Assembly: GCA_001051155.2 (NCBI GenBank)
Contig: JYIP02000011.1
Location: 1,116,001-1,180,000, forward strand
Source of the DNA: Chrysoporthe austroafricana
Taxonomy: Eukaryota > Ascomycota > Sordariomycetes > Diaporthales > Cryphonectriaceae
Reading direction: 5' to 3'
DNA: 64,000 nt
Part shown: positions 8,998-62,652 of the stretch, in pieces
Position numbering within the stretch: the first letter of the stretch is position 1
Layout: each line of letters opens with the position of its first letter
Notes under the pieces: generated by a model
The model's input: only the letters and a program-made list of their open reading frames with translations
What the model was told of the DNA's origin: nothing
Database searches by the model: none
Translations under genes and position numbers: made by a program

Positions 8998-9000
8998 TAA

Positions 9001-12339: not shown

Positions 12340-14215
12340 TCGCAAAGACTGTATTAATAAAGCTATTAATATTACTAAAACTAAGATATATTACGCAATT
12401 ATTAAGTCGTATTTTTCCGTAAATGCCTTGCTATAAGATTAAAATTAATAAGAAATAGTATATTTAGCTATATTCAACTTTTATGCAATGTTATATTTTA
12501 TATCCCAAGAGAAACCTTTTAAGGTTTGCCGAAAAAGCAGGACTATATAGTACGCTAAGTATATTTATAAAGTATCGCTTAAGGATCGCTTTTCCCTGGA
12601 AGGATATCGGTAAGCTATATATTTATATAATAGCGAAAGCCGTTTCTATCGTAATATTTACGTAACGAAAAACTACTTGAACGATTTCTTTTACTGCTAA
12701 GAAGCTTATACAATAGCTTTTTATTAAGCGCTAATTAATAAAGATTATACTGATATAATAAACCGAAAAATCGAATATAATATTTACGTTTCCAATACCG
12801 AGCTAAGCAATAGCAATATTAATCGGCTATTAACTATTAAGGAAGCTTAAAAGCTCATTTCATAATATTCTATGCTATTATAAATTAATTGTTCTAGCCT
12901 TATTTACGAAAGATAAAAGCTTTATCTAAATACCCTTACTGGTACGGATATTATTACGAGCAAAGATATAAATAACAAATTAACGAATAACTCTATTAAG
13001 GGAATATTGCTTAAATTTATTTCGAATTCACTTATTATTCGTAATCCTATCCCTGCCCTATATACTCTATTAATAGCTTATCGTATCCTATTTCCTATTA
13101 TAATATTGAGAAATGATCGCTTACGAGATAAGCATAGCCGTTATATTAAGGATAAAGCTAGATAAATAATCCTAAGCGGTTGCAGCAACTTTATTAAAAA
13201 GGAAGTAAATGCCGTACGCTATATAGCCAATATAGCAGAAATCGTTATAGTTTACGAATATAATCGTAATATAGCTTTCGTTATTTGAAAGAAAATAGCC
13301 AAGAATATCAAGCCAGTCTTAGCCAAGCTTAAAGCCCTTAAGCTTATTATGCCAATCGCTAATCTAAGCCTATTTGCTATAATAGAACAAAACTTTATAA
13401 TGCTAGCTAAGCGCTATCGAATTATAAACGATATTATCGACCTAACCGAAAACGACTTACCGAATATAGCTAGCTTATTAACCATATTAAACAAGGCTCT
13501 TTAAGCTAGTATTAGTAATATCCTGCCCTTGCAAGTTATATTTCGCGCTATCCCCGCTTTATCTATCAAATATAATTCCAAATTCAAAGCTATTAAAGCC
13601 GAAATCGCGGTATATTACTGTATGCTAGCCTTTTATATATCCAAAAAATATATATGCTATAATTTTATTTAGGAAAGCAATTTCGGCATTAATCGTCCTT
13701 ACGTTATTAATAGCTTTGCCATTTATAATAATATTAAATTCGGTATTATCGGAATTTACGATAATCGTATTCAGTACTTCTTCCTTTTTACTATAGGAAA
13801 ATATATATACGAATTCATTACTTGGTTCCGCAATCTCGATCTTATTATCTTATTTAACCGGTCGGGCTTGCATTTCATTATAAACCAAATCTTCCGTTTC
13901 GAATACGATTTTAAGGCTATCAAGATCGTCTTTACTAAGGACGATATGGATTACAATTTCAATACTACTTTTCAGAAATAAGCTAACGAAAATAAAGATT
14001 ATTTTAGCGCTGCCCGGTTTTTGCAATACCAAAATCGCATAATAGGCTTCAAGTCCTATATTTAAGCGCATAGGCTAATCAAAACTTTATAGCTTGATAT
14101 CTATAATTATACTGACTTTTGCAATTATATCGGAAAGGAAAAACTATTTATTACATTCCTTTATAATTTATTAAACTTTAAAGCTATTGCTAAAGCTTAG
14201 GAAATTACCCTTAAT
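12340..14215 (+). pseudogene. Unassigned accessory ORF downstream of pol in G1 copy A
   Basis: After the chromodomain tail, a single plus frame of roughly 600 codons continues toward the 3' LTR, interrupted only by stops of the CAA/CAG/TGG-to-TAA/TAG type. Legible segments: INITKTKIYYAIIKSYFS near 12365-12420, YTLLIAYRILFPIIIL near 13058-13107, KDKARxIILSGC near 13153-13190, LAKRYRIINDIIDLTEN near 13399-13450, VYYCMLAFYISKKY near 13608-13650, FGIIGIYDNRIQYFFLFTIG near 13739-13798, and YNYTDFCNYIGKE near 14103-14140. Copy B has the same ORF in the same place (about 35570-37490) with matching length. It is not a recognisable Gag, Pol or Env-type glycoprotein: I see no signal peptide and no obvious transmembrane segment. 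Function unknown. Confidence 0.65.
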
Positions 14216-14901
14216 TAATAAATATAGCTATTATTTATCGATATAATTTTATTAGCAGTATATAATACTGCTTTCTTTCAATAATTTATAAATTTAACTA
14301 TTTATATTAAAGACTAACTATAATATTGCTATACAATAACTATATGCGATTATCGGCTTTGCGTACCGATATATTCTATCGTAATTTCATTTTATATTTA
14401 CTATTATTATACTTATTTAATACCTTATTATCTGAAAGCTATACTTTCTATTAATATTTACGAGCAATTTTGGTTTTTAATTATATTTATACCAAATATT
14501 TCAGCAATAAACACGATTAAGCATTACCGAAATATACTTGAATATTGGCCAGCTTTATTATATACAAGTATTATATATATCTATTTACTTTAAGCATAAA
14601 CCGGTTATAGTAGAAGATTAATTCTAAGCTCCTGGTACAAGCAGGTTTTCTTTTTAATTCCCGGCATAAGCATATTTGTTATTCAAGTTCCCGGTATAAG
14701 CACGTTTATTTATTAGGACTCTAGTACGAGTCGGCTTTATAAAACGATTATTATTTTTTATATAATCTCTTTTGTCCAATAATGCTATCGTATTTTTCCT
14801 TGCCGTATAATCCAAGGTTTTACTATATTGTACTACCGCTACCCAAAACGTCTTTAACTATTAGCTTCTTTTATAAATAAAGGTTATAAAAGGCCGGCAA
14901 T

Positions 14902-15109
14902 TAATAGCAAAATCCATAAACGTAATGAATTTATAATAGATTTGCCTGGTAAATCTATAGTAAATCCCTTAATAAATACGCAATGAATTCATTAAGTGGA
15001 TGCTATACCCTTACCGGGGGGCTTATATAATGCCCTGATAAGCTCTTAGCGTAATTTACTTTTTTAAGAAAACTATGCTTTATAATATATTTCAGTACGT
15101 TTACTATCA
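14902..15109 (+). repeat. 3' LTR of G1 copy A (208 bp)
   Basis: Begins TAATAGCAAAATCC and ends TTTACTATCA. Before RIP the ends would be the inverted pair TGATAG/CTATCA. Length and sequence match both LTRs of copy B (27719-27926 and 38166-38373). The right flank ATAATCGTATTGAA is collinear with G2 interior sequence near 58705. Confidence 0.9.
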
Positions 15110-18000
15110 ATAATCGTATTGAATTTTCTACTTTCGTTTATAAAGTTATTATCCTTATTTTATCGAAAGATATTTTGAAGCTTTTTAAGTTCCGTATTTT
15201 AATAATCCGACTGTTTGCTAAATGCGTTTATTCTGTTATTTTCGGATCCTTTACAATAAATAATTTTTAAATCGAATTATAAAAGGAATTCTGCTTATTT
15301 AACTTATTATTTATTCAGAACTTTTATCGTTATAAATATTATTAAGTTCTTATAATCCGAATGTATTATAATCTAGTATTTGATTCCGATTAAATAGTAT
15401 TGTATTATAAACGCTGCAGTAATCCAAGAATAAACTGTAATATTAAAAGGGTTTATGCTAGCAAGAGCGGTATTAAGTACAGCCTTGAATATTAGGAAAC
15501 GTGCTTAAATTAAAAGGTTTACAATGTTTATAAGCCAATATAGCTATTACTGGGATATAAGTAAGGTCCAAATAATACTTAGATTTACGACTGAAAAGCT
15601 ATAATAATCTATCTGGTAAATGTCCTATCTTTATATATCCAGCTTTTCAGTTCTGGATTACTGGCTTATCAAATGATCCGGTAATCCTGGCTTACTGGAT
15701 TACTTAATGATTTGGTGATCCTTATCTTATCTAACCCTAACCCTGGGTTAGTACTTACTCAAGGTTCCCTGAATTAGGAAAGAGGCTCGGCGCCTGCCCG
15801 CCATCCTTCCTTATTGCAACCTTGGTTCTTGTTGGGTTATAATATATTGCTATTTTTTAAATGCTTTTATAATCGTTATTAATTCTTTATTTGGAATATT
15901 ATAATTGAATTCCGGGCTATTTAGCTTTTTCGAAAAGTTGCTTACGATTTTAAGGCGTTTTTAGTTATTTCGTTAGCCGAGCTGCCCCTTGAATGCATAG
16001 TCCGATATATCAATTTCGATTTCAAATAGCTTATTTGAGTTTGCCTTGCAGAGTATAGATTCTGATATAACTTTTTTCTTGATTTTGTTAAATGCTTTTT
16101 ATGCTTTTTATATTTATTCGAACTTTCAATTTTTTTTTCGTAAAATCTGTAAAAGAGTATGCGATTTTGCTATAGTTTCGAATGAATTATTAGTAAAAAT
16201 TAGCATAGCCGAAAAATATTTTAATTTTTTTAGTTTTCTTTAATATAAGCTATTCTTTTACTGCTTAGACTTTATCTTTTTATATATTAATTCTACTTGG
16301 TTCTATAATATATCCGAAATAATTAACTTTTTATTAATAAAAATAATATTTATTTAATTTAATTAAAAATTTATTATTCTATAAAATTTAGAATATTTGC
16401 TATATATATTGCTTATATAATTCGAAATTTTTCGAATAAATAAAGATATTATTAAAGTAAATAATAATAATAATATTTAAGTATTTGCAAAAAATATCGT
16501 TAATTATTTCCTAGAAAGATACGAGCGCATTAATTAGTCTAAAAGGTAAGATTATATATTCGAAATATCTGTAACGGGTCCTAAATGTTATTTTCCAAAT
16601 GGCGTTTTCTTTAATCCGAATATAATAATATCTTTCTTTAAAATCGAACGTAATAAACCAATTTGTACTAATCAATCGATCTCGCATTTCTCCTATTAAA
16701 AATAAAGAATAGCGATTCTTAATCGTAATATCGTTAAGCTATTAATAGTTTATATAAAATCGTAATTTGCTATTTTTCTTAAGTATAAATAGGATCGAGT
16801 ATTTTGCGAATAATTGCAATTTCCGTATATAGCCTTTCTTTAGATTTTCGTTAATATATTCCCTGAATATTTCGAGTTTTGTTTAATCGAGCTTATAAAT
16901 AAAATAGTTCTGGGGCTTTATCCTTTCCTTTAATGGAATTTTATAGTTAAAAGGGCTGTATTTTAATAAACTAATATCGAATTTCCTTTGCTATAATTTC
17001 TTGAATTTATAGTATTTCTTTAATACGTTTTTGAGTTCTAATAACGGTTTTTCTTTATTTTCTGAGATTTGGAAGAATAAAAAGTATTATTAAGCGTACT
17101 TTATTTCGCTTGCTTCCTATTATTATTTTCGAGGCTTAATCTTTAATAGTTTTGAATATTTATTATTTTTTAACCCGAACTTTTGCCCGTAATTTTCCTG
17201 TATTTATCGTTTTGAAAGCTATATTTCTTTATAGTTTTATAATCTATATAGTTTTATAACGCTTTGCGCTAAATCGATTTTCTATTAATTGCTAATCGCT
17301 TAATTTCCTAATTTGTCTTTAATTTATATTTATAGGTTCGAAATATTCGTAATCCTTCCTTATTTTCTAGCAAGTTTATTTGCTTTAAAAGCATATCTAA
17401 GCCTGTTTAAGCGTATATTTCTGATATTATTTTCAGTAATTAAGATTTTCTTTTCTCTATTAATTGCAACTTTTTCAGTAAGTACGGCTTATTCCTATAA
17501 AATCTGGTTAATAGTTCAATCGATCCGAAAGTTATATTTCTTAAGCTAAAGTATTTTTAAAATTAATTCGTATTATATTATATTTATAATATCGAAAGTA
17601 GTTTTTATTATAAAGCTTTAAATCGAAATAAGTAAATAATTAATTTCTATATCGATTATATTAAAGTTATATATAATCGTTTTTCCTTTTATAATATTAA
17701 GTTTATAAAGGTCTTTCTTTTATATTTAAAGAATTCGTTCTCTATTAATAATTTCTAGTAAAATAAAATTTCTTTATACGCTATTATTCAAAAATGCGCT
17801 ATATTATTACCTATTAATATATGCGTTTAGTATAATATATTTTTCGTTTTCTTTCGTAATTGCATATAGGAACCTTATAATTCTAATCGGCTGTTATCTC
17901 GTTATAAGCGATCTTTTTTTTAAAGGGGTATTCTAAGCTTTTCTCGCTATTTGCCTTGCTAGCTTTCTTGTTTAGCTTTAGCCATATTGCCTTGCCTTCT
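15110..18000 (-). pseudogene. Pol of G2 element 2 (RIP-degraded, interrupted by a solo LTR)
   Basis: The minus strand encodes the RT block; the catalytic motif at 16448-16459 reads YFNN in place of YFDD, followed by IFIYSKNFELYKQYI. The RT N-terminal and protease regions extend to about 18000. RNase H begins left of the solo LTR (15403-15844), whose insertion splits it, and continues to 15110. Plus-strand open stretches here, such as 17313-17549, are antisense shadows: element 1 shows the same shadow at 4342-4692. Confidence 0.8.
15403..15844 (-). repeat. Solo G2-type LTR (442 bp) with TATTG target-site duplication
   Basis: Ends are TATTATAAACGC and GGTTATAATA (RIP-altered TGTTATAA/TTATAACA). 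TATTG flanks both sides (15398-15402 and 15845-15849). The empty site is visible in element 3 at about 58985-59010. A solo LTR arises when the two LTRs of a full element recombine. It contains a telomere-like CTAACCCTAACCCT at 15731-15744. It is less AT-shifted than the host element. Confidence 0.9.
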
Positions 18001-19960
18001 CAGCTTTTTGCAATCGATGCTATTCTTTAGCCTTATCTTGCATATGGATAAAGCATGCCGTAATATAGCATTATTCCTATATCGTTTTTCTTTAAATGCA
18101 TTTCTAAGGATAATTGTCGGGTAGTTCAATATAAGCATTATTATTCTCAATATGCAAGACTTTTCTATATTTTTTTCGGGATTCCGCAATAAACTGGATT
18201 AATTAGTCTCATTCCTTAATTGGAAACCAATTATATCTGATTTTCTTATTAAAATATATTTAGCAATTATAATAAATGTAATATATTTAAGCAAGTTTAT
18301 AGTAATAAGGGTATAAATAACTAATCCTTCTATTTTCTTGAGGTTTGTATTTGCTATTCTGAAACGGAATGCCTTAAAGGAATTCTTATAATATAAGTCC
18401 GTAAATAAAATGTTTAATTTTCGTATATTTGGATATCTAGTTATTCTATTTCGGTTGTTCCTATTTCGCATATTAAGTAGCCGTTTCCTCTATTTCTATA
18501 TCGAGTTTTTCCTTAAATATAGAGATTAGTAAATTATCTGGCTATCTGTCTTGCAATGCTATTTTTTCGAATATAGCGCTTAATATAAGTATTCCTGCTT
18601 ATTAAATGCTTATTTCGTTTTCTATTATTACGTCCTATTATTGATTAAAGTAATATTCTAAGGGAAACTTTCTTAGGTTTTCTTCCTTAATATCCAAAGG
18701 GTTATTTGAATAATCGGAATTACTGCTATTTATAGCCGTATCGTAAATAGAGCCTTTTTTTCTTATAGCGAATTGCTTTTATTTTTTAAATTTGCATAAA
18801 AACTATTTTGAACTTTCTTTTGCCGAGAAGTATAGTAAGCAATAGTTTTAATAGCAAGCTATCTAGCTTATGCTATTATAATTAAGGTTTGCTGCTTATT
18901 CCGGTAAGATATTATTATCCAGCTAATTGGGTTTCTATTGCTATACGATATTAACTTATCTTTCCGGGACTGGTTTCTAATTTCGTTTCTTCTTTTCTTA
19001 ATAATAATTGCATGCGATATAGCCTTTCTTACCGCAATTATAGCAGGTAATTCCTTTGCGCTATTCCCGTATAAAGGTATTCAATTTTATAAATCTAGTA
19101 TATATTGTACTTAAATAGGCCGTATTATTTCGGTTTTTCTGCTAGAACTTGCGTTTTTTCGAATTAAGTTAATATTTCGGGATATTATTATAGTTCTTCT
19201 GCTATTATTAATGCCGTTCGTAAAGCCGGTTATTAATGCGAACTGCTTTATTAATAAATTCGCTAAGTTTTTCAAGTCGGTTTTCTTTATAAAGCTTATC
19301 CTTAATTTCTTCTTTAAGTTCCGTATAATAAGCATTTATAAAAGGTTCGTTTTCGTAATTCAGATAAGCAATAATCTGTTTGAACTTGGCCGTATAGTTT
19401 ATAGCTAAACTAGTTTATCTAAATGCTTTCAATTATCGTATTATAATATATCTTTTATTCGAATCTTTAAAAATTTTAATAAAAGCTAATTCAAAATTAG
19501 CATAATGCTAAAAAATGCGCTTTATATTTTCAGAACGGAAATCCTTATTATTATTTAAGTAATTATAGAAAGTTAGCTTCTATTATTAAAGGGCTATTCT
19601 TTCAAAGCGGCTTCTTACGAAATCGATTTTATTATAAGTAATTCTGAACTAAGCGCTATAATGTTTGAAATAAGCCTTGAATTGAATTAAGAAGGCTTGG
19701 AAGTCTTTTCGAATGCTTTTATAAAGCTTAAGCTTATTAAGTTTGAAAGCTTTAACCTATTAAAATGTATTGAAATAAAAAACCTCATTCTTAACTTCTT
19801 TAAGCTATTAATATAGAACTATATTTTATTATTAAAATTATTCGTTAATAAAAATAATTAAAGCTTTTTCCTAAAAAACTTAATTACTAGAAAAAAATAA
19901 AATCTAAAGCGCTATTATATTTCTAATATTGCTTAAAAAGTATATACTAAACCGTTCTTA
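18000..19960 (-). pseudogene. Gag of G2 element 2 (RIP-degraded)
   Basis: The zinc knuckle at 19008-19045 on the minus strand reads CYNCGKKGYIACN. This is better preserved than in element 1: CxxC and the last Cys are intact and only the His has become Tyr. Upstream, the capsid region (about 19200-19790) matches element 1 at about 2300-2760. Frames contain RIP-type stops. Confidence 0.72.
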
Positions 19961-19977
19961 AATAAAAGTTATAAAAA

Positions 19978-20425
19978 TATTATAAATACTGCAATAATCT
20001 TAGAATAAACTGTAAAGTTAAAAGGTTTATACTAGCAAAAGCAATGCCAAATATAGCTTTAAATACCGGAAATACAATTACTAAAGTATTGCAATATTTA
20101 TAAGCTAATAAGGCTATTACTTGAAAGTATTATAAGGTTCAAATAATACTTAGATTTATAATTGAAAAGCTATAGTAATCTATTTAGTAAATATCCTGTC
20201 CTTATATATTCAGCTTTTCAATATGGATTTATTAGATCTGGAATAAATCTTTAGATTTTAGGTTTGCTAGATTTGGGGCAGATTTCCCAGATTTTCCTTA
20301 TTTTGTAATTCTAATCCTGGGTTACGTAAGCAATTATAGAATCTTTTTTAAGCAGGGCTAAAGGAGAAGCGCTTAGCTAGTTCCCTTTTCCTTTGCATAC
20401 CCCGGTCTCTTATTGAATTATAATA
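19978..20425 (-). repeat. 5' LTR of G2 element 2 (about 448 bp)
   Basis: Plus-strand ends are TATTATAAATACTGC and TTATAATA. The left side joins the element leader and the right side is the external flank. No matching duplication can be tested because the other LTR is outside the window. Confidence 0.82.
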
Positions 20426-27713: not shown

Positions 27714-27718
27714 GCGTG
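27714..27718. repeat. Target-site duplication GCGTG, left copy, of G1 copy B
   Basis: GCGTG immediately precedes the 5' LTR and recurs at 38374-38378 after the 3' LTR. Confidence 0.93.
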
Positions 27719-27926
27719 TGATGGCAAAACCCATGGACGAGGTGAATTCGTAATGGATTCGCCTGGTGAATCTATAGTGAATCCCCTGATAAATACGCAA
27801 TGAATTCACCAGGTGGATGCCATACCCTTACCAGGGGGCCTATATAATGCCCTGATAAGCTTTTAGCGTAATTCACTTTCTTGGAAAAACCAGGCTTTAT
27901 AATATATTTCAGTACATTTATTATTA
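27719..27926 (+). repeat. 5' LTR of G1 copy B (208 bp), lightly mutated
   Basis: Begins TGATGGCAAAACCCATGG and ends TTTATTATTA. It keeps many CpA and TpG sites that are TpA in the 3' LTR, for example TGATGG versus TGATAG and CCCATGG versus CCTATAG. Confidence 0.93.
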
Positions 27927-28240
27927 ATTAGTAGCTATGCTTTGCATGCCTTTGCTGCGTAATCGGGTTTCGATTATTGGCTTTATAGAATAACAGCTTT
28001 TATAGGAATATTAGTCCTGTAAGATAACGGCTTCTATAAAGGTATTGGCTCTATAAAGTATCGGTTTCTATAAGAATATCGGTTTTATAAGATATCGGCT
28101 TTTATAAAAATAGCATTCCTATAAGAGATATTATAATTATTTATTAATAATTTATTGCTAATTTACTATAGCAATTACTAGCAATAACGTTTTATTATCG
28201 CAGCCTAATTATATCGAGATTAAGCATTCCGCCCAAATAT
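27927..28240 (+). other. Leader of G1 copy B between 5' LTR and first coding segment
   Basis: AT-rich with several degenerate direct repeats of a GGTTTTATAAGATATCGGC type (about 27985-28110). A primer-binding site cannot be recognised after RIP. Confidence 0.45.
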
Positions 28241-30930
28241 ATAAGTTTATATAAGCCTTAAATAATTCTGAAAAGAAGGATTGGGTTATATCGGATATTA
28301 AGATTTTTTTCGAAATCGTATGCGTTTTTATCGATTGGAAACTTTTAGCCGATCGATACAAAAAGGCGAAGCAGAACCCTAGGGAAGCCAATATACTTTT
28401 ACAGAAAGCAAAAGCATAAATAGTTAAATAAAGATAGCCTTTATTGCTTAAGCGCTAGATTTAAGAAAGAAGAAAGTCGAATTTTAATAAGAATCTATTC
28501 TAGTAAATAAGAAAGAATAATATATTTTAAGAGGATTTTTCTAAATATTGTAAATTTCAATAGCTTGCCGAAATAATAACGGAAAAAAAATAATAATAAA
28601 TGCTTATAGAAATAAACGAGAGCGAAAATACTTTTCGATTTAATAATCCGGAAAATCCGTTAGAAAAATTGGCTTAGTAATAGTTTATCGAAAATCGAAA
28701 GCATTATATATTTGAATATATCAATATTAATAGCGGAATTAAATATATTTATCTATTACGATATTCGATTAAAAATCTAAATCTTAAATTTATTAATAAA
28801 TCCGAAAATTCTTTAATTATAATAAGAAAAATAAATAAAAATAAAAGAAAATAATTAGTTTTAAGAAATAAGCATATCTCTTTCCTTTTAATAAAAACCT
28901 AAAATCGGAATATTTCTAAATAAAGTTCTATTACAGCTATTCCGGCTAACCTTATAAACTTTATAATAGAAAGCATGCTAATGCCTTAATCGGATTTATC
29001 AAATTATCTATAACTTTTTAAAGAAAAAAATTATAAAGAAAAAAAACTAAATAAGGGAAAATCGGATAATTATATTACTATCTTTCAGAAATACTTAATT
29101 CTTTTTTCCCTAATTACTAGCTTATTGGACTAATTTTTATAACGACCCGAAATAAAAGCAATTTACCAAAATGGCTTTATTTCGGAAAAAGCAATATATA
29201 TTGGGTTTAAGAAAATATTCCGATTGCAATAAGCTTTCAATATACAAATACTTTAATCGGAACTTATTAAAGAACTTTTTCTTATTTCGGCCACGAAATA
29301 CTATACTAATAACGGATATTGCTTTACCAAACCAGTATTTCCTAATATTAGGGAATATATCCGGCAAATATTTATATTAAGAGCAAGAAGTTAATTAAAC
29401 TAAAGATTATTCTCGGGCCTTAAGCTAGATATTGAAATTGATTTTAATTTCTAAGAAGAACTAATTAATAAGCCAGATAGATTACCGGATTTATTGGATT
29501 TTAGCGATAATGAAAATAATAATTCTCGAAATCTATTATTCGGCTATAAGCAATCTAAAGATTTCCGAGCTTATTAACTTAATTTACTTAAATTTATAGT
29601 ATTGCTTATTAGTATTAATAGGAAATTCAAGAATACGGTTATAAGGCAATTCCGATTTTATAAGAATTAAAACGATTATATTAATTTAATAATTATATTT
29701 ATTATAGATAGCAAAATTATTATCTAGAAAGATTTTCAAGCTTTTATAAACCGGTATAAGATATATATAGCTAGAAATGCAAAATATATTAAATATTTTA
29801 GTTTTTATTTACCCGTTTACTTAGCTAGAATAGCATATATTTAGTTTTATTCTATATTATTTTCCTAAAAATATAAAGACTTTATTTTGCATAAGTATAA
29901 TTAAAGCTAATAGAAAAAGTAATTAAAAAGAGATTTCTTTATATTGCAGAAAATTGCAAAAGATTTGCTAAATGCTTAATAATATTCCAGAAAAAATATA
30001 CGAAATAACCGTAATATTCTGGAATTTACTTATTATATTTATCGATTTACTAAACTGGCCGAATATCCAAATTCGTATTTGGCCAGGAATATTTAAGATC
30101 GGATCGATAAAGAATTAATAGCTAGATATTTCGATAGACCTAGTCGAAATAAGAATACGAAAGATTTCGAAAAACGTTTTAAAGCAAAATAAGAGATATA
30201 GCATATTTTCGAATCAAACCGTATAATAAGATTATCTCGTAAACCCGTATAACCGGTATAGAAAGTTATGCAATCGGCTGCCAATTTTCCTAATATTAAT
30301 ATTCATTTCCCAGCCAATATATTCCCAGAATGCCTTAGAGAATTCAGACCTTAAAGACCTAAATATTTATTTTGTTTAACAAAAATATTTAATTAGCTAA
30401 ATCTATTTAAAAGCATTAAATATATCCCGGAATACGAATTCCGAAAGCTTTTATTAGAATAATAACGAAAATTAATAAATATTCGGAATTAATTACGAAA
30501 GCAGATAGCCAGATAACAAAATATCTCTAATATAGCTAGAAAGATATTAATTAATATTATAAATAATAGCAGAAATTCAATTTCAAAAAACCGAAACTTC
30601 CAATTGCGCTTTTACTATTAATTCGTACGAAAAGATACTAAAGAACGTTTTATCCAGTTAACCCTAGCAAATTTCAATATTAATAACGAAAAATTGCAAT
30701 ATAATTTAGATAAAAAGGATAAGCTGGCTTAAGAAAGCTATTTCCCTATAAATGATAATCTATTTATAGCGAATAGCAATAAATACGATAAAGAGACCGA
30801 AAATAGCGAAAACCTATAGAAATAAAAAAACGAATTGGAAGAACAGGCTAATAAAGAGAATATAATAATCGAAAACGATATCTGGATTTTTCGAGCCGAA
30901 AAAGCAAAATTATTAGTAAATGAAAATATA
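28240..30930 (+). pseudogene. Gag-like region of G1 copy B (RIP-degraded)
   Basis: Plus frames give long stretches separated only by TAA/TAG: EKKDWVISDIKIFFEIVC near 28270-28325, then RYKKAKQNPREANILLQKAK near 28347-28408. Later come YIYRFTKLAEYPNSYLARNI near 30038-30095 and ERFIQLTLANFNINNEKLQY near 30646-30700, with an acidic glutamate-rich region ahead of the protease (30790-30900). Position before the protease argues for Gag, but I see no zinc knuckle. The 5' end is not definable. Confidence 0.5.
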
Positions 30931-33900
30931 TTCTATATTAAATACTTTATATAATTATTTAGTCAGCTATAAAATTTTCCCAAAATCGATATATAGAAAG
31001 AAAAAATCTTGGGATATAATATTCCTATATTTATAGTTAAGCCTTATTAAGGCAGCAGCTATATATATGCAAGAGCTGCAGCCAGAATATACCCGAATAA
31101 GCTGGATATAAAAGTTTATATCGATATAAGCGCTAATCGTTATGCTATTGCCGAAAAATTGCTAATACAATTCCTTAAAGCGAAAATAAACTGGAATATA
31201 AAGGCTAAGCTTAGAAGCATAAGCTAATCGCTAGCAAAAGGCTAGGCTGAATTCGATCTATATTTCTAGAGCAATAAATACGGCTATTTATTTATATTTC
31301 GTACTCGAATAAAAGCTTAAGTATTAAATCGATTAAAAATAAGCATTCTATTAAGATAGGAATATAATATTCTTTACGAACTGGATATTCTGAATTCAGA
31401 ATCGTTTATACGATTTGGTTATTTTGGTAATATTATAGCGAAAATAGAAATATTTGCCCGAATGCTAATACAATCCTAGCAAGCAAAGGCTGCAACTATT
31501 ATAATAATGCTGCTTAGATTTTATAGGCTAATTCCTATTAATATTAAGCGAATTCCAAAAATATAATCTTTCTATTCAAGCCGAAATAGAAAAGGTAAAT
31601 GAATTGCTTAATAGGCTATTAAATTAAAGAAGTTCTAGTAACGAACCAAATAGCAACCCTTTTAAAAATCCAGAAAAACCAATTTCTAAAGATAATTGAA
31701 TTATTCCAGATAAATTATATAACCCCGCTAGCGAATTATAATAATTATTATTATATCGTACGATAATACTTCTTTTAATAAGCTAAAGATGGGTTATAGC
31801 TTTCAGGAAAGCTGAATTCAGATTAACTATTATTTATTAAGCATATTTTCCAATAAACTGCGGAAATTACTGGAAAATAGCTAGAAAAGTACCGATTTCC
31901 GGATATAGAAACCCCCGAAATAAGAGATTATTTCGAAAATTATAATAAATTGGGAATTCGAAAAGATAAAGCTATTAAGGAATCGGAAATTGATTTCGGT
32001 ATATATATTTGCAAGCATTTACCGGAATTTTTCTATAAAATTATAAAATTAATACGGGCATATGCTAGAATTTTCAAAAATATAAATCCTATTAATATAT
32101 TAATCGATTAATAAATAAAAATTAATTTAGTCGAAAGATAGCAAAACCAGAAAATAAAATAAAAGTTATATTATTTAAGTAAAAAAGATTAAGAAATAAT
32201 TAATGAAATTTTAAATAAATTATATTAATAAAATCGAACTAAATAGATTATAAATATAATGCTATTTGGTTTATTAATTTTTATAATTTAGAAGAATATA
32301 AATAGCTAGAAAAAAGGATATATAATAATTGATTTATATATTTTGAATAAAATCTTAATTCTTAATATTTACTTTTTGCTATTATAATAAGAAATTATTA
32401 AATAATTAAGAAGAAAAATATATATTATAATAGTAAATGCATAGCAATTTTTCTATTAATTCCTAGTATATCCAGATTATAGAAACCGATTTACTATTAT
32501 TAGTTATCGTAATTAAGAAAAAATAAAAATTCTATTTATAAGATTTCGAAATTTACTATTTTATATCTAGCATTTTATAGATTAATTCTTACGATTATAT
32601 TACAAGTTTGCTTCCGTTTTTATAAATAATATTATTATCCATTCAATTATAGAACAAAATTACTTGCAATACTTATAAATTATCTTCTTGCTATTTTTAC
32701 GCAAAAATATTTTATTAGCTAGATTCAAATTATTTCTTAAATATCTTTCAGTCTAGATCTTAAAATTCAAAATAAACAAATTCGGAATTTCCAATACAAA
32801 ATACCGGATACAAGCTATTCGCAATTTAGAATTCCCCAAAATATTCCAGTAACTAGAAAAGTTTATTGGATTTATAAAATACTTACGCTACTTAATTCCT
32901 AAATATAATTATAGAATCAATCCATTTTAAAAAAAGAAAACTAGAATACTAAACGAGGCTTGCTAATCGAATTATTTATTTTCAAATATAAAACGGCGAA
33001 ACTATATTATGCAAGCCATTTTCGACTTAATATTAGACGAAATTAATAATTTTTACAATTTCAAAATAGCTTTGGAAGCTAAAAATACTTTATTTTATTA
33101 TATTCCAGACAAATTTCTTTTTATCTAGCTAGATATATTTAAGAAAATAGAGTTTTCAAGCATTATTTTCCAATTAGCAAACGATTATATATAGAATAGA
33201 ATATTACTAATAGCAAATATAGCTATATAATTAATTTTCTATTTAAGTAAGATAATTAACGAAACAAAACGAAAGTACTGGCTTATAAAGCTAGAGATAG
33301 CCTATTTAGTATAGCTAATACGAAAATTGCGAATAATAATAAAATCGAACCGAGCCAAACTAATTTATATTTTTACCGATTATACAATAATAATTAGCAT
33401 TATCTATTCGTTATTTATAAATACGGTAAACAAAATTAAAGCAAATATGCGGCTAATTCTCGTTTCGGAATATTTAAGCTAATTCAACTTGAAAGCATAC
33501 TATATACCGAAAAAGTCAAACGTTTTCGCAAATGCTATATTAAAATTACTATTTATTTAAAAACTTATTAATAATAAAAGCGTTCTAGATAAGATATAAG
33601 AAGACAAACTTATTCAAATTTTCAGTAAAATATCTATAGATAGCGAAATAAAAAGGCATATCAAAAAAGGATACGAAAAATACTCTTTATAATTCAAAAT
33701 AATCGAATAACTGAAAAACTCAAATAAGATTGCCCGACTACTTTTTATATTAAATTATAATAGCTTACTATTTCTTAAGGATTATTATAAGAAATAACGA
33801 TTATGCATCCCGAATAAAGTAGCATTAGATTTTATTAAAGAAGCTTACGATAGAAAATACTATTTCGGCATAAATTGCATATAGCATAATTTAACAGATC

Positions 33901-35340
33901 GATTCGTTATTAGATATTGCTATGCTAAAATATGCAATTATATATTAATATATCGAGCTTATAACGAGAATAAAAACGACTTATAGCAACTTTTAAGGGA
34001 AATGCAGCTTATATTATTTTTATTAATCCTATTCTATATTATTATTATAGACTTTATTATAGGATTACCGATAATATTATTTATAAATATTATATAAGCT
34101 TTAGCTAAAATGCTATTTTTGGATGCATTTCTTACGATTATAGATAAATATTCCAAAATTATAATTATTATATTAAATAATATAATATATATTATAGCAG
34201 ACTGGGCAATTCTTATCTTACGGATATTTTATATTACTAGCTAAGGAATACCCAAGAAAATCATTTCAGATAGAAATTCGAAATTCCTATCGGAATTCTA
34301 GAAATATTTATAAAAGGCTATCGGAACGAAATTTGCTTATTCTACTGCTTTGCATTCGCAAACGGATAAGCAGTCTGAAATAAAAAACCGAGTAATTGAA
34401 ATAGCAATTCGGCATTTTATAACTATTTATTCTGATATAGAATAAACCGAAATAATACCGGCATTATAATTCAATCTGAATAATGCATATAACCGAATTA
34501 CAAAATATTTAGCTAGCCAAATGCTATTCGGATTTAACCTATTATCGGGCTAGTAAATAAGGGATATAATATTCCTAGCAAAAGAAATCTTCCAGGAAAA
34601 AGCTTAACTTTTTATTGCTAAAGCGCAAATAATAGCCAAATTGCAATATAATAAACATTATTGCCAAATAGTTTTCGAACTAAATAATTAAATATATATT
34701 CGTTTAAGCTACGGGTATTTATTGCTAAATAACCTATTTCTAAAGTTTTTATAATAGAGAATAGGATTTTTCCAAATTATTCGAAAAATAAGGAATTTAG
34801 CATATAAATTGAAATTGGCTTTTTATATAAATATCTATCCAGTAATCTCAGTAATACAATTAATGCTTGCAAACTTTCTTAAGATAAACCCCTATAAATA
34901 TAACCCTATATACTAGAACTTAATAGATATGCTAAAAAATCCGGATATCGAGAAATATCTGGAAAACTACTAATATTACAAGCTGGAAAGGATAATTAAC
35001 CGCTATAAGCGAAAGTATAAATATAATCCGCGCAAAATTGAATACTTAATAAAATAAATAAACTACTCTAGCTATTATAATATATAAATACCCCGTAATG
35101 CCCTGAATACGGATGAAATAATACGTAATTCCGAACGGAAATGCGAAACTATAGCCAAATTGCAAGAAAAAGCAAAGCGAAAGCGGCTATTAACGGAAAA
35201 AGTCCTTAAACCGGGAAATATCATTATAACTGCCTTATGAAAACGAGGCAAGCTAAAGCGCGACTTACAAATAGAAAATGCATTAGAATAAGCTAATCTA
35301 TTTATTCTAAGAAATCGAAAGAACTTGCAATACAATAAGC
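30930..35340 (+). pseudogene. Pol of G1 copy B: protease, RT, RNase H, integrase, chromodomain-like tail (RIP-degraded)
   Basis: Protease active site at about 31119-31137 reads DISAN for DTGAS. The RT motif at 32619-32630 reads FINN for FVDD, with ILxFKINxFGIS downstream near 32757. RNase H ends with the SNLKAYYIPKKSN-like segment near 33480-33520. Integrase about 33700-34560: DKYSKIIIIIL near 34145, IISDRNSKFLSEF near 34258, NQMLFGFNLLSG-type segment near 34518. YELERII-like and KIEYLIK segments (about 34975-35060) are the chromodomain remnant. Same domain order as copy A but without a nested insertion, so this is the reference for the empty site of G2 element 1. Confidence 0.86.
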
Positions 35341-35569
35341 GCGCGTTAGGGTAAAAGCAATCGCTAAATAGGGCAAGTGAATTTCTAGCAAATGCAAAAG
35401 GTTATTATTTCGTAAACCGCTAGTGAATTCATTTTATTTTCTTCTTCTTATTAACGCATTTACGATTACTATTTCTATTTATTTATTATAGCTAGCTATA
35501 TTGCCCTATTATTACTATTTTTTATTATATTTTTAAATATTATTTTTGGGTATTAGGTTAGTATTATTA

Positions 35570-37490
35570 TTAATTTCGCTTTATTCCGCTAAGCTTCCGT
35601 AAATTTGCAAAAACTGTATTAATAAGGCTATTAATATTACTAAAACCAAAATGCATTATGCAATTATCAAATCGTATTTTTCCGTAAATGCTTTGCTATA
35701 GGACTAAAACTAATAAGAAACGGTATATTTAGCTATGCTTAATTTCTATATAATATTATACTTTATATCTTAAGAAGAACTTTCCAAAGTTTGCTAAAGA
35801 AATAGAATTATATAATATGCTAAGTATATTTATAAAGTATCGCTTAAAGACTGCCTTTCCCTAAAAGGATATCGGTAGGCTATATATTTATATAATAGCG
35901 AAAGCCGTTTTTACCGTAATACTTACGTAACGAAAAACTATTTAAGCGATTTCTTTCGCTATTAAGAAGCTTATACGGTAGCCTTTTATTGGGCGCTAAT
36001 TAATAAAGATTATACTGATATAATAGACTAAGAGGTCGAATATAATATTTATATCCTTAATACCGAGCTAAGCAGCAGCGATATTAATCGGCTGCTAATT
36101 ATTAAGGAAGCTTAAAAGCTTATTTCACAATATTCTATGCTATTGTAAATTAATTATTCTAGCCTTATTTACGAAAGATAAGAATTTTATCTAGGCATTT
36201 TTACTAGCGCGAATATTATTACGAGCAAGGATATAGATAATAGATTAACGAATAATTTTATTAAAAGAGCATTGCTTGAATTTATCCCGAATTTACTTAC
36301 TGTTCGTAATCCTATTTGTATTCCATATACCCTATTAATAGCTTATCGTATCTTATTCCCTATTATAATATCGAAAGACGATCGCTTACGAAATAAGCAT
36401 AGCCGTTATATTAAAGATAAGGCTAAACAAATAATACTAAGCAATTGCAATAATCTTATTAAAAAGGAAATAAATACTATACGCTATGCAACCAATATAA
36501 TAGAAATCGTTATAATCCATAAATATAATCGTAATATAGCCCTTATTACTTAGAAGAAAATAGCCAAGAATATTAAACCAATTTTAGCCAAACTTAAAGC
36601 TCTTAAGCCTATTATGCTAGTCGTTAATCTAAGCCTATTTGCTATAATAGAACGAAATTTTATAATGCTAGCCAAGCGCTATCGAATTATAAACGATATT
36701 ATCGACTTAACCGAAAATAATTTACCGAATACAGCTAGTCTATTAGCTATATTAAGCAAAGCTTCCCGAGCCAGTATCAATAATACCCTGCCTTTGCAAG
36801 CTATATTTTGCGCTATCCCTGCTTTATCTATCAAATATAATCCCAAATCCAAAACTATTAAGGCCGAAATTGCGGTATATTATTGCACGCTAGCTTTCTA
36901 TATATCCAAAGAATATATATATTATAATTTTACTTAAGGAAGCAATTTCGGTACTAATTATCTTTATATTATTAATAATTTCGCCATTTATAATAATATT
37001 AAATTCGGCATTATCGGAATTTACGATAGTCGTATCTAGTATTTCTTTCTTTTTACTATAAGAGAATATATATACGAATTCGTTATTTGGTTCCGCAATC
37101 TTGATCTTATTATTTTATCCAACCGGTCGGGCTTATATTTTATTATAAACCAAATCTTCCGTTTCGAATATAACTTTAAGGCTATTAAGATCGTTTTTAC
37201 TAAAGATAATATAAATTACAATTTTAATATTATTTTTCAAAAATAAGCTAACGAAAATAAAGATTATTTTAGCGCTACCCGGTCCTTATAATACTAAAAT
37301 CGCATAATAAGCTTCAAATCCTATATCCAAACGTATAGGCTAATTAAAATCTTGCAGCTTAATATTTATAATTATACCAATTTTTGCAATTATATCGGAA
37401 AAGAAGAATTATTTGCTATATTCCTTTGCAATTTATTAAACTTTAAAGCTATTGCTAAAGCTTGGGAAATTATTTTTAATTAGTAAATAT
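35570..37490 (+). pseudogene. Unassigned accessory ORF downstream of pol in G1 copy B
   Basis: One register from about 35570 to 37490 with RIP-type stops only. Two stretches stay open: 36272-36553 (93 codons; YTLLIAYRILFPIIIS, RLRNKHSRYIKDKAKQIILS) and 36614-36937 (107 codons; LAKRYRIINDIIDLTENN, PALSIKYNPKSKTIKAEIAV). It aligns without indel-type shifts to copy A 12340-14215. Same sense as gag-pol and located where some retroelements carry env, but composition and lack of membrane segments do not support a glycoprotein. Possible captured host gene or element-specific factor; no family recognised. Confidence 0.66.
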
Positions 37491-38165
37491 AGCTATTATT
37501 TATCGATATAATATTATTAGCAATATATAATACTGCTTTCTTCTAATAATTTATAAACTTAGCTATTTATATTAAAGACTAATTATAATATTATTATATA
37601 ATAACTATATATGGCTATCGGCTTTGCATACCAATATATCCTATTATAACTTTACTTTACATTTACTACTATTATACTTATTTAATATTTTATTATCTGA
37701 AAGCTATACTTTCTATTAATATTTATAAGCAATTTTGGTTTTTAGTTATATCTATACCAAATATTTCAGCAGTAAATACGATTAAGCATTACCGAAATAT
37801 ACTTAAATATCGGCTAGCCTTATTATATACAAATATTATATATATTTATCCATTTTAAGCATAAACCGATTATAATAGAAGATCAATTTTAAGCTCCCGG
37901 CATAAGCAGGTTTTCTTTTAGTTTTCGGCATAGGCATATTTATTATTCAAGTTCCTAGTATAGGTACGTTTATTTGTTAGGATTCTGGCACGAATCGGTT
38001 TCATGAAACGATTATTATTTCCTATATAATCTCTTTTATTTAATAGTGCCGTTATGCTTTTCCTTACTATATAACTTAGAGTCCTACTATATCGTATTAC
38101 CGCTACTCAAAACGTCTTTAATAATTAGCTTTCTTTATGGATAAAGGTTATAAAGGGCCAGCAAT
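37491..38165 (+). other. Spacer between accessory ORF and 3' LTR of G1 copy B
   Basis: AT-rich; no coding frame recognised. Contains GGCATAAG/GGTACG-type short repeats (37890-38000) also present in copy A (14640-14720). The purine-rich run before the LTR is not clear. Confidence 0.45.
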
Positions 38166-38373
38166 TGATAGCAAAACCTATAGATAAGGTAAATTTGTAA
38201 TAGATTCGCCTAATAAATCTATAGTAAATCCCCTAGTAAATATGTAATGAATTCACTAGGTAGATGCCATACCTTTACTAGGGGGCTTATATAATGCCCT
38301 GATAAGCTTTTAGCGTAGTTTACTTTTTTGGAAAAACCAGGCTTCATAATATATTTCAGTACGTTTACTATTA
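38166..38373 (+). repeat. 3' LTR of G1 copy B (208 bp), heavily RIP-mutated
   Basis: TGATAGCAAAACC to TTTACTATTA; same length as the 5' LTR. It differs from it mainly by G-to-A and C-to-T changes. GCGTG follows at 38374. Confidence 0.93.
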
Positions 38374-38378
38374 GCGTG
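38374..38378. repeat. Target-site duplication GCGTG, right copy, of G1 copy B
   Basis: Matches 27714-27718. Only 9 further bases of the original flank separate it from the TA duplication of the next transposon. Confidence 0.93.
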
Positions 38379-48633: not shown

Positions 48634-49911
48634 CTACAGCTTGCTCCTGTCCCCAATTACGAGACCGTTGATCGCGTCTGTCCAGTCTCGCATAGTCTGG
48701 CCAATTTCGAAACTGTCCAGATATGTCACGTCATCGCGCTCACTCCCGCGATAGTAAACCTCTTTATCCCCCGAAAGACAGTTGTCCATCGTTAGCACCT
48801 GGACCGAGAGCTCGGCGCGTACTGTAGCCAGAAGCGTTTGCCAACTTCCGCCCTCAGCTATGATATCAACAAGAGAAAAGTAAGCCTCCTCTAAGGTATC
48901 TTTGTGACCGAGTAAAAGCGCAACCAGCTCGACGTCGGTACATTGGACCCCACTGATACCCAAAAATCGCAAGTTTTGCAACCGTAGTCTCTGCGAGAGC
49001 TCGGGGAAGTGTTCATGTTCATCTCCTGAGTCAAATTCGAGGAACAGACGCTGTAGTCTCGGAAAGAGCGCGATAAAACCTAGGAGATCGGTCACGTACT
49101 CGCTGTTGGGGCGTGTCCTGTTGCCTGGGTGTACTGAGAGGCTGAGGCTGGTAAGGCTGACAGGATGGCTTCGAATGTATCGCAAGGCGGGCCTTGGAAA
49201 GACCAGCATATCCGGGCTGATGCCTTCACCACGTAAGCGTCCAGGAGAGATGTCCAATTCGTAGAGAGATGTGCTGCTTGTAACGATAGCCAAAACAATA
49301 GCGCGAAGGGCTTGCTCCACGAATTCGACACTGTCAAGGCCTTCTATAGCGTTGGTGAGAGTCAGGCCTGTTTGTTGTATCAGGGTCGTTGCACCCCATG
49401 GTTTGAATGCATCGTGTACCACGACGGTCTCCAAGTTTGGAAGTGTGGCCATCGCTTGCGCCAGGTATGTAGTGTTGACCCCAAACTCCATCATGAATCT
49501 TTGGTTTTCCAGCAGGAGTTCGTATGCCTGTCTATCCACGACAGTCTCTTCATCCATCTCCCTAAGATTCCGATCAAGGATCCCATGATCCATACCCCCT
49601 TCTCGGAGGTCATCACCCCAATACCATAAGGCGTGACTGTCTTCGGGTTCCTCCGTCAGGTGGTCGATACAGATCGTCAAGTCCCTCAAGGCGGGACCGA
49701 AAACACGATGACGAGAGATCTCGATAAGATTTTCGAGGCTATGCTGCTGCAGCATCACGTAACGCGTCTCGAAGCATTGCTTGGAAATTGCCGGCAGCGC
49801 GACACCGTTCAGATTTCTCGACGCTAGCCGAAGGTTGCACAGACTTTTCGAATCTGATGCGCAGGCGATTAGAAATAATATCTCGTTGGGAAGTCGAAGA
49901 AGCGTCGGCAT
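48634..49911 (-). CDS. F-box protein, 425 residues
   Basis: Uninterrupted single exon, ATG 49911 to stop 48634. N-terminal F-box: LLRLPNEILFLIACASDSKS, then LCNLRLASRNLNGVALPAI (residues 4-45), with the LPxEIL core that binds Skp1 in SCF ubiquitin ligases. The rest has irregular leucine-rich segments (DLTICIDHL, LSLSVHPGN, LQRLFLEFDSG, LQNLRFLGISGVQC, VQVLTMDNCL) typical of fungal F-box proteins that recruit substrates. The partner is unknown. A cluster of His/Glu/Asp (DSGDEHEHF) precedes the last repeats. No RIP stops; codon use matches the island. Confidence 0.88.
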   Translation of the reverse strand: MPTLLRLPNEILFLIACASDSKSLCNLRLASRNLNGVALPAISKQCFETRYVMLQQHSLENLIEISRHRVFGPALRDLTICIDHLTEEPEDSHALWYWGDDLREGGMDHGILDRNLREMDEETVVDRQAYELLLENQRFMMEFGVNTTYLAQAMATLPNLETVVVHDAFKPWGATTLIQQTGLTLTNAIEGLDSVEFVEQALRAIVLAIVTSSTSLYELDISPGRLRGEGISPDMLVFPRPALRYIRSHPVSLTSLSLSVHPGNRTRPNSEYVTDLLGFIALFPRLQRLFLEFDSGDEHEHFPELSQRLRLQNLRFLGISGVQCTDVELVALLLGHKDTLEEAYFSLVDIIAEGGSWQTLLATVRAELSVQVLTMDNCLSGDKEVYYRGSERDDVTYLDSFEIGQTMRDWTDAINGLVIGDRSKL

Positions 49912-55600: not shown

Positions 55601-55975
55601 CGAAAATTCTGTTTTGGCGCTATTATATTCTCCCGATATAATTTTAAGTATTAAGCGTAAGGCTAATGAAAAGCTAATAGCATTTCGAGAAGTTCCGGAA
55701 TTTATAAGCGCAGTTCGTATTTAAGCTTAAAGGAAAAATAAGCTTTTTTTTGCTCAAAGTTCAGTTTTTATTGCTTTTCCTTACTAAATAATCGATATTT
55801 GCTATTAAGGAAATTCAATTTTATACTTTATTCCAGAAACTTACGATTAATTATTTTCAAGCAAAAGCTAATAAGCAACTTATTTATTTGAACCCTTTAT
55901 AATTAAAATAGATATAAAGCATTAGCATTACTTATTAACTATTATAGCTATATATATATATCGATTAAATCTGAA
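52620..55975. other. RIP-degraded block with unrecognised coding remnants
   Basis: Readable plus-strand islands: NGSRFNAENAKLRNDRDILL near 52625-52690 with KNMQRKRNRVIAE near 52718-52758; YYNPYTPIYITQNEISKIEI near 54297-54358; and a longer one at about 54591-55060 (IAQIAAIQKSGKNEREPNSG, ELTKYVRIYKAIFQA). Stops are of RIP type. They do not match the G1, G2 or Fot1 elements of this window and I recognise no domain. The rest is AT-rich without structure I can name. Confidence 0.35.
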
Positions 55976-56245
55976 TATTATAAACGCTGCAGTAATTTTA
56001 AGATAAACTATAAAGTTAAAAGGTTTATGCTAATAAAAGCGGTATTAAATATAGCTTTAAATATCGAAATATATTTAACAAAATAATTGCAAAGTTTATA
56101 AGCTTATAAGGCTATTACTTAAATATATAATAAAGTTTAGTAATGCTTAAATTTATAACTGAAAAGCTATAGTAATTTATTTAATAAATATTCTATCCTT
56201 ATATATCCAGCTCTTTAATATAAATTTGCTAGATTTAAAGCAAAT
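55976..56245 (-). repeat. Partial G2 LTR (270 bp) abutting the 3' LTR of element 3
   Basis: Begins TATTATAAACGCTGCAGTAA like a complete LTR end but stops after 270 bp, where the full LTR starts again. Its inner part (TTTGCTAGATTT) resembles the LTR of element 2 more than the adjoining one. Confidence 0.8.
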
Positions 56246-56686
56246 TATTATAAACGCTGCAGTAATCCTAAAATAAACTATAGAATTAAAAGGTTTATAT
56301 TAGCAAAAATAGTATTAAATACAACTTTGAATACCGGGAAACGTATTCAAACAATTTATTTATAATATTTATAAGCTAATAAAGCTATTATTAGGAATAA
56401 TATAGGGTTTAAGTAATACTTAAATTTACGACTGAAAAGCTATAATAATTTATCTAATAAATATTTTATTCTTATATATCCAGCTTTTCAATTCTGGCTT
56501 ATAAGCTTATTAAGTAATCCGGTAATCCTAGCTTATTGAATTACTTAATAAGCTAGTAATACTTATCTTATCTAACCCTAACCCTAGGTTAATACTTATC
56601 GAAATTCCTTTAAGTAAAGATAAGGACCGGGCGCTTAATTGCCGGCTTTTGCTTCTATAATTCTAGTTCTTTATTGAATTATAATA
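56246..56686 (-). repeat. 3' LTR of G2 element 3 (441 bp)
   Basis: Ends TATTATAAACGC and TTATAATA. Contains the telomere-like CTAACCCTAACCCT at 56572-56585. The element interior follows on the right. Confidence 0.88.
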
Positions 56687-56788
56687 TTATCCTTTTCCTA
56701 TTAATTATTGTCTTTAATAATTTCCTATAAGGATCCTTGTCTATAGCTGCTTTATAATCGTTCTTTCTTAATCGGGATATCGAATAGA

Positions 56789-57375
56789 ATGCAAAAAACT
56801 CGTTTCGCTTATTCGGCTAAAACCCAATATCGTAATTCTCTTTTGGAAGCGGTTTTGCAGCATGTTATGCAAATACTTTCCTGCTCGTTTTGCAAGGGTT
56901 ATAGTATTCTTAGCTATTAGGTTTCGGAAAGAAATTCTTCTCGTTATTCGGAATATATATAGCTTAACCGTTTTCGATACGATATTTTAAAAGTTACTCC
57001 AGATAAGCTTTGCAAGATAGCTTATTAATACTAGAAGCTGGAAAAAGAGCTAGAGGTCGCAAAAGAGAAAATATTTCGCTTGTATTAATAAAAACGCAAA
57101 TAGTATAAAAAGATAATGCGAGCTATTTGCTAGAATATTGATAATATCGAAAAATTAAAGCGGTTAGAGGCGGAAAAGACTGAAGAAAAGTATTGTAAAG
57201 CCGAAACTGAATATTGCGTTTTAGAAGTCTTAATCCCCGAAAATCTTCTTTCTGAAAGTTTCGATCTGGATACGGCTTTATAGCAATTTAATCCCGATAT
57301 CGATTGGATTAGTATTAATTTAACTGTAAAATCCGAAATTATTTCGGGTCTTTCTAATTATTCCTTTAGCTAGTT
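56789..57375 (+). pseudogene. Antisense accessory ORF of G2 element 3 (Cys motif plus coiled coil)
   Basis: ATG 56789: MQKTRFAYSAKTQYRNSLLE, then MQILSCSFCKGYSIL, SERNSSRYSEYI, a helical region KLEKELEVAKEKIFRLY, EKLKRLEAEKTEEKYCKAET, and LSESFDLDTAL before QFNPDIDW. Interrupted by TAA/TAG at Gln-like positions. It aligns residue for residue with the minus-strand ORF of element 1 (7782-8393), including the spacing from the N-terminus to CSFC. In both elements it is antisense to gag-pol and next to the 3' LTR, so it is a family trait. Function unknown. Confidence 0.68.
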
Positions 57376-57449
57376 AGTAAGTTTCTTTTCCCAATATTTT
57401 TTGAGTATTTATTACGCATTCTTTAGGTTATTAACCGGTTTTTAGCTAT

Positions 57450-61583: not shown

Positions 61584-61640
61584 ATTATGCTTTTATTATA
61601 GCTGCTTTATACTTAAGATATCGTATTTCTCTAATCTTAT

Positions 61641-62572: not shown

Positions 62573-62652
62573 TATCGTAAATATCTATTTCGAATATAGC
62601 TAATCAAATCCATCTATTCGTTTTTTATCTTTAATTACATATTATAATATAT

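What the first reader, a model, noticed from the sequence alone, without database searches (positions are those of the whole stretch)
35570..37490. Conserved unassigned ~600-codon ORF downstream of pol in both G1 retrotransposons
Seen: copy B (35570-37490) and copy A (12340-14215) both have a long same-sense frame between the chromodomain tail and the 3' LTR. They match in length and phase and are broken only by RIP-type stops. Established: canonical Ty3/Gypsy elements end shortly after integrase or chromodomain; extra 3' ORFs are usually env or captured genes. Inference: this is an accessory gene carried and selected with the element. No glycoprotein features are evident.
Basis: partly seen in the sequence, partly recalled or inferred. 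Interest (0 to 1): 0.75.

Follow-up and report, generated by a model that had tools for sequence, protein, structure and literature searches.

The report
Extra gene in a fungal retrotransposon
A fungal jumping gene that spread to many copies and was then wrecked by the fungus's own mutation defence once carried an extra protein gene of unknown kind after its usual enzymes; extra genes in that position are a known feature of such elements, but this protein matched nothing searched here.

Summary
Copy B is a complete 10.65-kb Ty3/Gypsy element (window 27719-38373) with 208-bp LTRs and a 5-bp target duplication. Between its integrase end and the 3' LTR lies a same-sense reading frame. In 62 genomic copies no stop is shared by all copies from 36182 to 37480 (433 codons), while 36179 and 37481 are stops in 62 of 62. 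The other five frames nearby have 172 shared stops in 3982 codons. A RIP-proof purine/pyrimidine test agrees. The frame belongs to the family: 115 scored matches including A and B, and 28 of 39 pol copies have it at the expected spot (11 not readable). Its product matched nothing in Pfam, NCBIfam, PDB sequences, 5.8 billion proteins, or viral and prokaryote contigs; a single-sequence fold failed (pLDDT 33). Best reading: an 'aORF-3S', a sense ORF between pol and 3' LTR, a class described in plants, with unknown additional ORFs also reported in fungal chromoviruses. Function cannot be tested from these RIP-damaged copies.

The parts
27719..38373 (+).
   Evidence: LTR pair by self-BLAST; ends and target duplication read
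27714..27718 (.). Target-site duplication, left copy GCGTG (right copy 38374-38378)
27719..27926 (+). 5' LTR, 208 bp, begins TG
   Evidence: 27 differences from the 3' LTR, all transitions
34212..34586 (+). Integrase catalytic-core region (pol frame)
   Evidence: The same region of copy L043 matches retroviral integrases (3dlr 2.2e-10, foamy-virus integrase 1e-9) and Ty3 Gag-Pol (5.8e-7) in the PDB by sequence. RNase H upstream in copy B at E 6.6e-4, below Pfam's curated cut-off
34971..35141 (+). Probable chromodomain
   Evidence: Weak PDB sequence matches of copy L043 to chromodomain proteins (E 0.19 and 0.25) plus by-eye reading; no Pfam chromodomain match
35352..35354 (+). Likely end of pol: first pol-frame stop after the chromodomain that is present in every copy read (60 of 60); next at 35424 (61 of 61)
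35570..36178 (+). Uncertain upstream extension of the extra frame
   Evidence: For: period-3, third position highest; 17 stop-capable codons of 203. Against: stops in every copy read at 35600, 35699, 35714, 35876; 8 of 18 stop-capable codons fixed as stops in 22 copies, pol 11 of 78
36182..37480 (+). Extra ORF, firm part: 433 codons with no stop common to all copies; each of 58 gap-free copies carries 2-11 stops of its own here
37481..37483 (+). Likely ancestral end of the extra ORF: TAG/TAA in 62 of 62 copies, with a second stop at 37484 in 61 of 62
37484..38165 (+). 3' stretch before the 3' LTR, apparently non-coding
   Evidence: No period-3 (p = 0.83 and 0.44); 25 indel runs against copy B in a 22-copy alignment of 37490-38165, 3 distinct events by BLAST
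38166..38373 (+). 3' LTR
12917..14215 (+). Same ORF in copy A (firm part, 433 codons)
14904..15111 (+). 3' LTR of copy A

Best explanation
The frame is the RIP-damaged remains of a third gene of a Ty3/Gypsy, probably chromovirus-type, element: an additional sense ORF between pol and the 3' LTR ('aORF-3S') of at least 433 codons. Shown: the ancestral frame was open, it is a regular part of this high-copy family, and the copies read have since been mutated by RIP-like transitions. Inferred: it was made from the element's own RNA as a separate protein, because pol ends about 0.8 kb before the firm part, in another frame, with stops between; that would need a spliced or internally started message, as has been reported for env-like ORFs. 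It then helped the element's own cycle as an accessory protein (particle assembly, nuclear traffic or host interaction). The functional step is a guess, roughly 1 in 5 for any one of these roles.
For: Shared-stop test in 22 and 62 copies: 0 of 433 codons. Control in 22 copies: 11 of 883 codons in the pol frame against 61 of 883 and 37 of 882 in the other two forward frames of pol. RIP-proof YRR test: 20 of 433 codons against 316 of 2161 in the other five frames, p about 2e-11, treating codons as independent. Period-3 composition in the last 430 bp, p = 1e-10, none in the stretch after the ORF. Family-wide presence. Complete element with target duplication.
Against: No sequence or fold relative was found, so no function is indicated (fold pLDDT 33). 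No test of selection was possible: transversion-variable columns show no third-position excess (5, 2, 4 by codon position in 22 copies), though they are too few to judge. The first third of 36182-37480 shows no significant period-3 (p = 0.19) and its highest position is the first, not the third; the pol control shows a low second position rather than a high third, so the signature is not uniform. No start codon could be fixed.
Confidence: 0.75

Rival explanations
1. A host gene or piece of another mobile element picked up by one master copy shortly before the burst. It then hitch-hiked to high copy number without serving the element.
For: The copies look like one recent burst: few transversion-variable columns among 22 copies (18 of 2650 in pol, 11 of 1299 in the ORF). 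A passenger would then be as widespread and as open as a useful gene. No relative of the protein was found.
Against: The shared-open frame lies in the slot used by aORFs and ends before an apparently non-coding stretch. No transposase, reverse transcriptase or other mobile-element domain was found in it (8 copies). No host donor was seen, but the genome search scores only the best candidates, so a diverged host gene could not appear.
Confidence: 0.15
2. An envelope-like gene: the protein once acted in transfer between cells or hyphae, as proposed for env-like ORFs in other Gypsy elements.
For: Position and orientation match env. One marginal hydrophobic stretch in 5 of 5 copies scanned.
Against: The hydropathy scan (top five windows per copy) showed no clear leader or C-terminal anchor; its one recurrent peak scores 1.6-2.2 on Kyte-Doolittle in RIP-biased residues. 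No Pfam envelope match. No signal-peptide predictor was run.
Confidence: 0.05
3. Chance open frame or artefact of RIP base composition.
For: RIP and AT-richness distort stop counts; the upstream 200 codons behave much like a non-coding frame in the shared-stop test (5 of 204 against an expected 8.8, p = 0.12).
Against: The purine/pyrimidine test is unaffected by RIP and gives p about 2e-11 for the 433 codons; the shared-stop test gives 5e-9.
Confidence: 0.03

Closest known systems
Plant LTR retrotransposons with aORF-3S (sense additional ORFs between pol and 3' LTR; PMC7264820, abstract and passages seen)
   Same: Position, orientation, high-copy presence, unknown or env-like function
   Different: Fungal host; no env-like features established; not compared in sequence with those proteins individually
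Fungal chromoviruses with 'add. ORF' of unknown function, element lengths to more than 13 kb (PMC2864245, passages and Figure 3 legend seen; figure and supplement not seen)
   Same: Fungal Gypsy elements, long elements, additional ORF of unknown function
   Different: I could not see where their ORFs lie or compare sequences
Botrytis BcGypsy1/Boty-like elements with brtn (PMC8365987, passages seen; Zhao et al. 2011 seen only as a reference title)
   Same: Additional gene in a fungal Gypsy element
   Different: brtn is antisense by that title; here the frame is sense and the reverse frames have stops in all copies read
dUTPase-bearing fungal Gypsy elements (PMC2864245, passages seen)
   Same: Fungal Gypsy elements with an extra domain
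   Different: There the domain is part of Pol; here no dUTPase match in the 8 copies scanned against Pfam

Membership tests
Ty3/Gypsy LTR retrotransposon | LTR pair with short target duplication | tested here: met
   208-bp LTRs 27719-27926 and 38166-38373, duplication GCGTG on both sides
Ty3/Gypsy LTR retrotransposon | RNase H before integrase in pol | tested here: met
   RNase H in copy B at E 6.6e-4, below Pfam's curated cut-off; integrase downstream in copy L043, best 2.2e-10, and Ty3 Gag-Pol 5.8e-7. Reverse transcriptase read by eye only (motifs recalled)
Chromovirus | Chromodomain at the C-terminus of integrase | tested here: inconclusive
   E 0.19-0.25 to chromodomain proteins at the expected place; no Pfam chromodomain hit, only a Tf2-1-like SH3 domain at E 0.012 before it
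[quoted passage not shown]
   36182-37480, + strand, after pol stops at 35352/35424 and before the LTR at 38166
LTR element with aORF-3S | Present in all or most copies | tested here: inconclusive
   28 of 39 pol copies shown to have it at the expected spot; 11 of 39 in neither scored list and not readable
LTR element with aORF-3S | Transcribed and translated | not testable with these tools
   No RNA data; each of the 58 gap-free copies read has stops
Env-like gene | Signal peptide and transmembrane segment | tested here: inconclusive
   One marginal hydrophobic stretch in a simple hydropathy scan of 5 copies, RIP-biased residues; no signal-peptide predictor
dUTPase accessory domain | Pfam dUTPase match | tested here: not met
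   No such family at E up to 1 (2 copies) or up to 5 (6 copies); RIP damage lowers sensitivity
brtn-type antisense ORF | Open frame on the reverse strand between pol and 3' LTR | tested here: not met
   Reverse frames over 35290-37700 carry 30, 24 and 57 shared stops in 62 copies; longest gap 543 bp

The most novel reading that the evidence does not exclude
The ORF encodes a protein family not described before, carried by a fungal chromovirus as a dedicated accessory gene for getting round fungal genome defence or for moving between fused hyphae. That would pin such a function on an additional ORF of a fungal Gypsy element.
Probability: 0.08. Interest if true: 0.7.

Novelty: new member of a known kind. 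Interest (0 to 1): 0.3.

Why it matters
It adds a clear case, read through heavy RIP damage, of a fungal Ty3/Gypsy element that carried a third, orphan gene to high copy number. It also shows a simple way to test for lost reading frames in RIP-damaged repeats without rebuilding them: stops shared by all copies, plus a purine/pyrimidine stop-codon count that RIP cannot alter. The protein itself gives no functional lead yet.

Tried and rejected
Family and homology searches with stops read as X found nothing for the ORF: Pfam on 2 and 6 copies (only TOM7 at E 0.05), NCBIfam on 2 copies (only E 0.054), PDB sequences (E 0.6 or worse), 5.8 billion proteins twice (none at E 10 and E 1, scoring the 7995 and 7512 word-sharing candidates), viral contigs and prokaryote contigs with a 354-residue piece of one copy. 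Sensitivity control: a PDB sequence search still found integrase in a RIP-damaged pol copy of GC 0.29, the least AT-rich of 18 gap-free pol rows. Pfam did not find integrase there or in copy B, so the Pfam silence is weak evidence. The protein set does hold Sordariales proteins.

Single-sequence AlphaFold of a naturally stop-free 354-residue piece gave mean pLDDT 33 and was not searched further.

A recurring weak match of ORF residues 246-266 to window 18668-18606 (E 0.096-0.15 in three of seven copies, weaker in two more) was inspected and rejected: it lies in a stop-broken frame of another Gypsy-like element whose zinc knuckle is in a different frame. Absence of indels in the ORF (0 in 79,239 copy-bases) was not used as proof because the copies were picked by their match to the ORF.

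I first suspected Leptosphaeria and its RLG_Rolly element (and passages of PMC4210507); a neighbouring gene points to Sordariales instead.

The odds given did not change.

Full report
What is there. Copy B is a complete LTR element: 208-bp repeats at 27719-27926 and 38166-38373, flanked by GCGTG on both sides. The LTRs differ at 27 sites, all transitions. Copy A matches B in two blocks (24-1525 and 9151-15107) with other repeats in between. The window lies in a 48-Mb genome of 22 contigs. Its AT-rich blocks (GC about 0.19-0.37 per kb) alternate with gene blocks at GC mostly 0.43-0.59. One gene in a GC block (48634-49911, minus strand) has its best match, 83% identity, in Thermothelomyces hinnuleus, and the other named hits are, from recalled taxonomy, also Sordariomycetes. 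The host is therefore probably a member of the Sordariales.

The element. RNase H was recognised in copy B at E 6.6e-4, below Pfam's curated cut-off. Integrase was recognised in a second copy, L043: 2.2e-10 to the best retroviral integrase chain, 1e-9 to foamy-virus integrase and 5.8e-7 to Ty3 Gag-Pol. A chromodomain is probable at 34971-35141 (E 0.19-0.25). The reverse transcriptase region upstream was read by eye only. After the chromodomain, the first pol-frame stop present in every copy read is at 35352 (60 of 60), then 35424 (61 of 61).

The extra frame. I compared 22 copies: A, B and 20 of the other 38 scored. In the + frame that contains 35570, no stop is shared by all 22 copies between 36179 and 37481; the next longest such gap in any of the six frames is 597 bp. 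Position 36179 is a stop in 62 of 62, 37481 in 62 of 62 and 37484 in 61 of 62. The other five frames over 35290-37700 have 172 shared stops in 3982 codons; at that rate the chance of none in 433 codons is 5e-9, uncorrected for frames and positions. As a control, the pol frame has 11 shared stops in 883 codons of 22 copies, and the other two forward frames of pol have 61 of 883 and 37 of 882. Each of 58 gap-free copies has 2-11 stops of its own in the 433 codons. At the commonest stop sites inside the stretch, other copies read CAA, CAG or TGG, the expected sources of RIP stops. The copies were chosen by similarity to the ORF, and the last 40 by protein similarity, which could favour less-broken frames; the first set was ranked by DNA similarity and gives the same stretch.

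A RIP-proof check. RIP makes transitions only, so the purine/pyrimidine pattern of a codon survives it. Every stop is pyrimidine-purine-purine. In copy B this class makes up 20 of 433 codons in the ORF frame, 316 of 2161 in the other five frames of the same stretch, and 78 of 883 in the pol frame. GC-bearing columns show period-3 composition in 37051-37480 (p = 1e-10) and 36601-37050 (p = 0.027). They show none that is significant in 36182-36600 (p = 0.19, first position highest), and none in the stretch after the ORF. In pol the mark is a low second position rather than a high third.

The upstream 200 codons. For 35570-36178 the evidence is divided. The third position is the richest (p = 0.0025 and 0.026), and stop-capable codons are few (17 of 203, p = 0.02), though frame 2 has as few. 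Several stops resolve into sense codons when more copies are read. Against this, four stops inside the stretch and one at its end are in every copy read. Among stop-capable codons, 8 of 18 were fixed stops in 22 copies, compared with 11 of 78 in pol (p = 0.007). Some may be saturated RIP sites: a resolved site at 36146 is a stop in 60 of 62 copies. I therefore treat 433 codons as firm and about 640 as possible.

Is it part of the family? 40 DNA matches and 115 protein matches were scored, A and B included; 113 of the 115 cover the query nearly end to end. Both lists are capped, so these are lower bounds. Starting from pol instead, 39 copies other than B were scored. Of these, 26 had an ORF match at the expected distance's list and 2 more: 28 of 39. 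The remaining 11 were in neither list and could not be read.

What is the protein? Nothing searched here resembles it: Pfam on 8 copies, NCBIfam on 2, PDB sequences, 5.8 billion proteins, viral and prokaryote contigs. Sensitivity to RIP-damaged protein is limited: Pfam also missed integrase and chromodomain in the pol pieces given, while the PDB sequence search found integrase. AlphaFold on a natural stop-free 354-residue piece, without an alignment, gave pLDDT 33, too poor to interpret. Hydropathy shows one marginal stretch in 5 of 5 copies.

Selection. The 22 copies carry almost no transversions: 11 of 1299 ORF columns and 18 of 2650 pol columns vary that way. They look like one burst followed by RIP, so within-genome comparison cannot show selection on the ORF. 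No related genome was available to the tools.

Comparison with what is known. A review of plant elements says additional ORFs lie more often between pol and the 3' LTR, in sense (aORF-3S) or antisense, and that many elements carry them in all or most copies (PMC7264820, abstract and passages). [quoted passage not shown] A second fungal survey does not use the words 'additional ORF' (PMC3248453, passages). Botrytis BcGypsy1 carries brtn, and further additional ORFs are mentioned there (PMC8365987, passages). The kind is therefore known. I found no description of this particular ORF in the literature searches, which cover only the held open-licence library; most papers listed there were seen as listings only.

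Mechanism. Shown: an open ancestral frame in the aORF-3S slot, widespread in the family, later destroyed by RIP-like transitions. Inferred: expression as a separate protein from a spliced or internally started message, since pol ends about 0.8 kb before the firm part in another frame. Guessed: an accessory role in the element's own cycle. A passenger gene copied along in a single burst remains the main rival.

Noticed in passing
window 15403-20229 (minus strand), 55974-61577 (minus), parts of 1509-9151: A second Gypsy-like family in damaged copies (self-BLAST); the copy at 15403-20229 has a zinc-knuckle-like and RT-like motif read by eye. Related sequence also lies between the two blocks of copy A.
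   Followed up: partly
window 35100-35399, minus strand, frame -1: An antisense frame opposite the pol C-terminus has no stop in any of the 22 copies over 100 codons; probably a by-product of codon use on the sense strand.
   Followed up: no
window 61635-62106 and 62101-62573: A ~470-bp tandem direct duplication, 90% identical.
   Followed up: no
window 48634-49911 (minus strand): F-box-like gene (below Pfam's cut-off), best match 83% to Thermothelomyces hinnuleus, pointing to a Sordariales host.
   Followed up: partly
window 27927-32000: The element's 5' part before reverse transcriptase is about 4 kb, long for gag plus protease; no clear single frame was seen in copy B.
   Followed up: no
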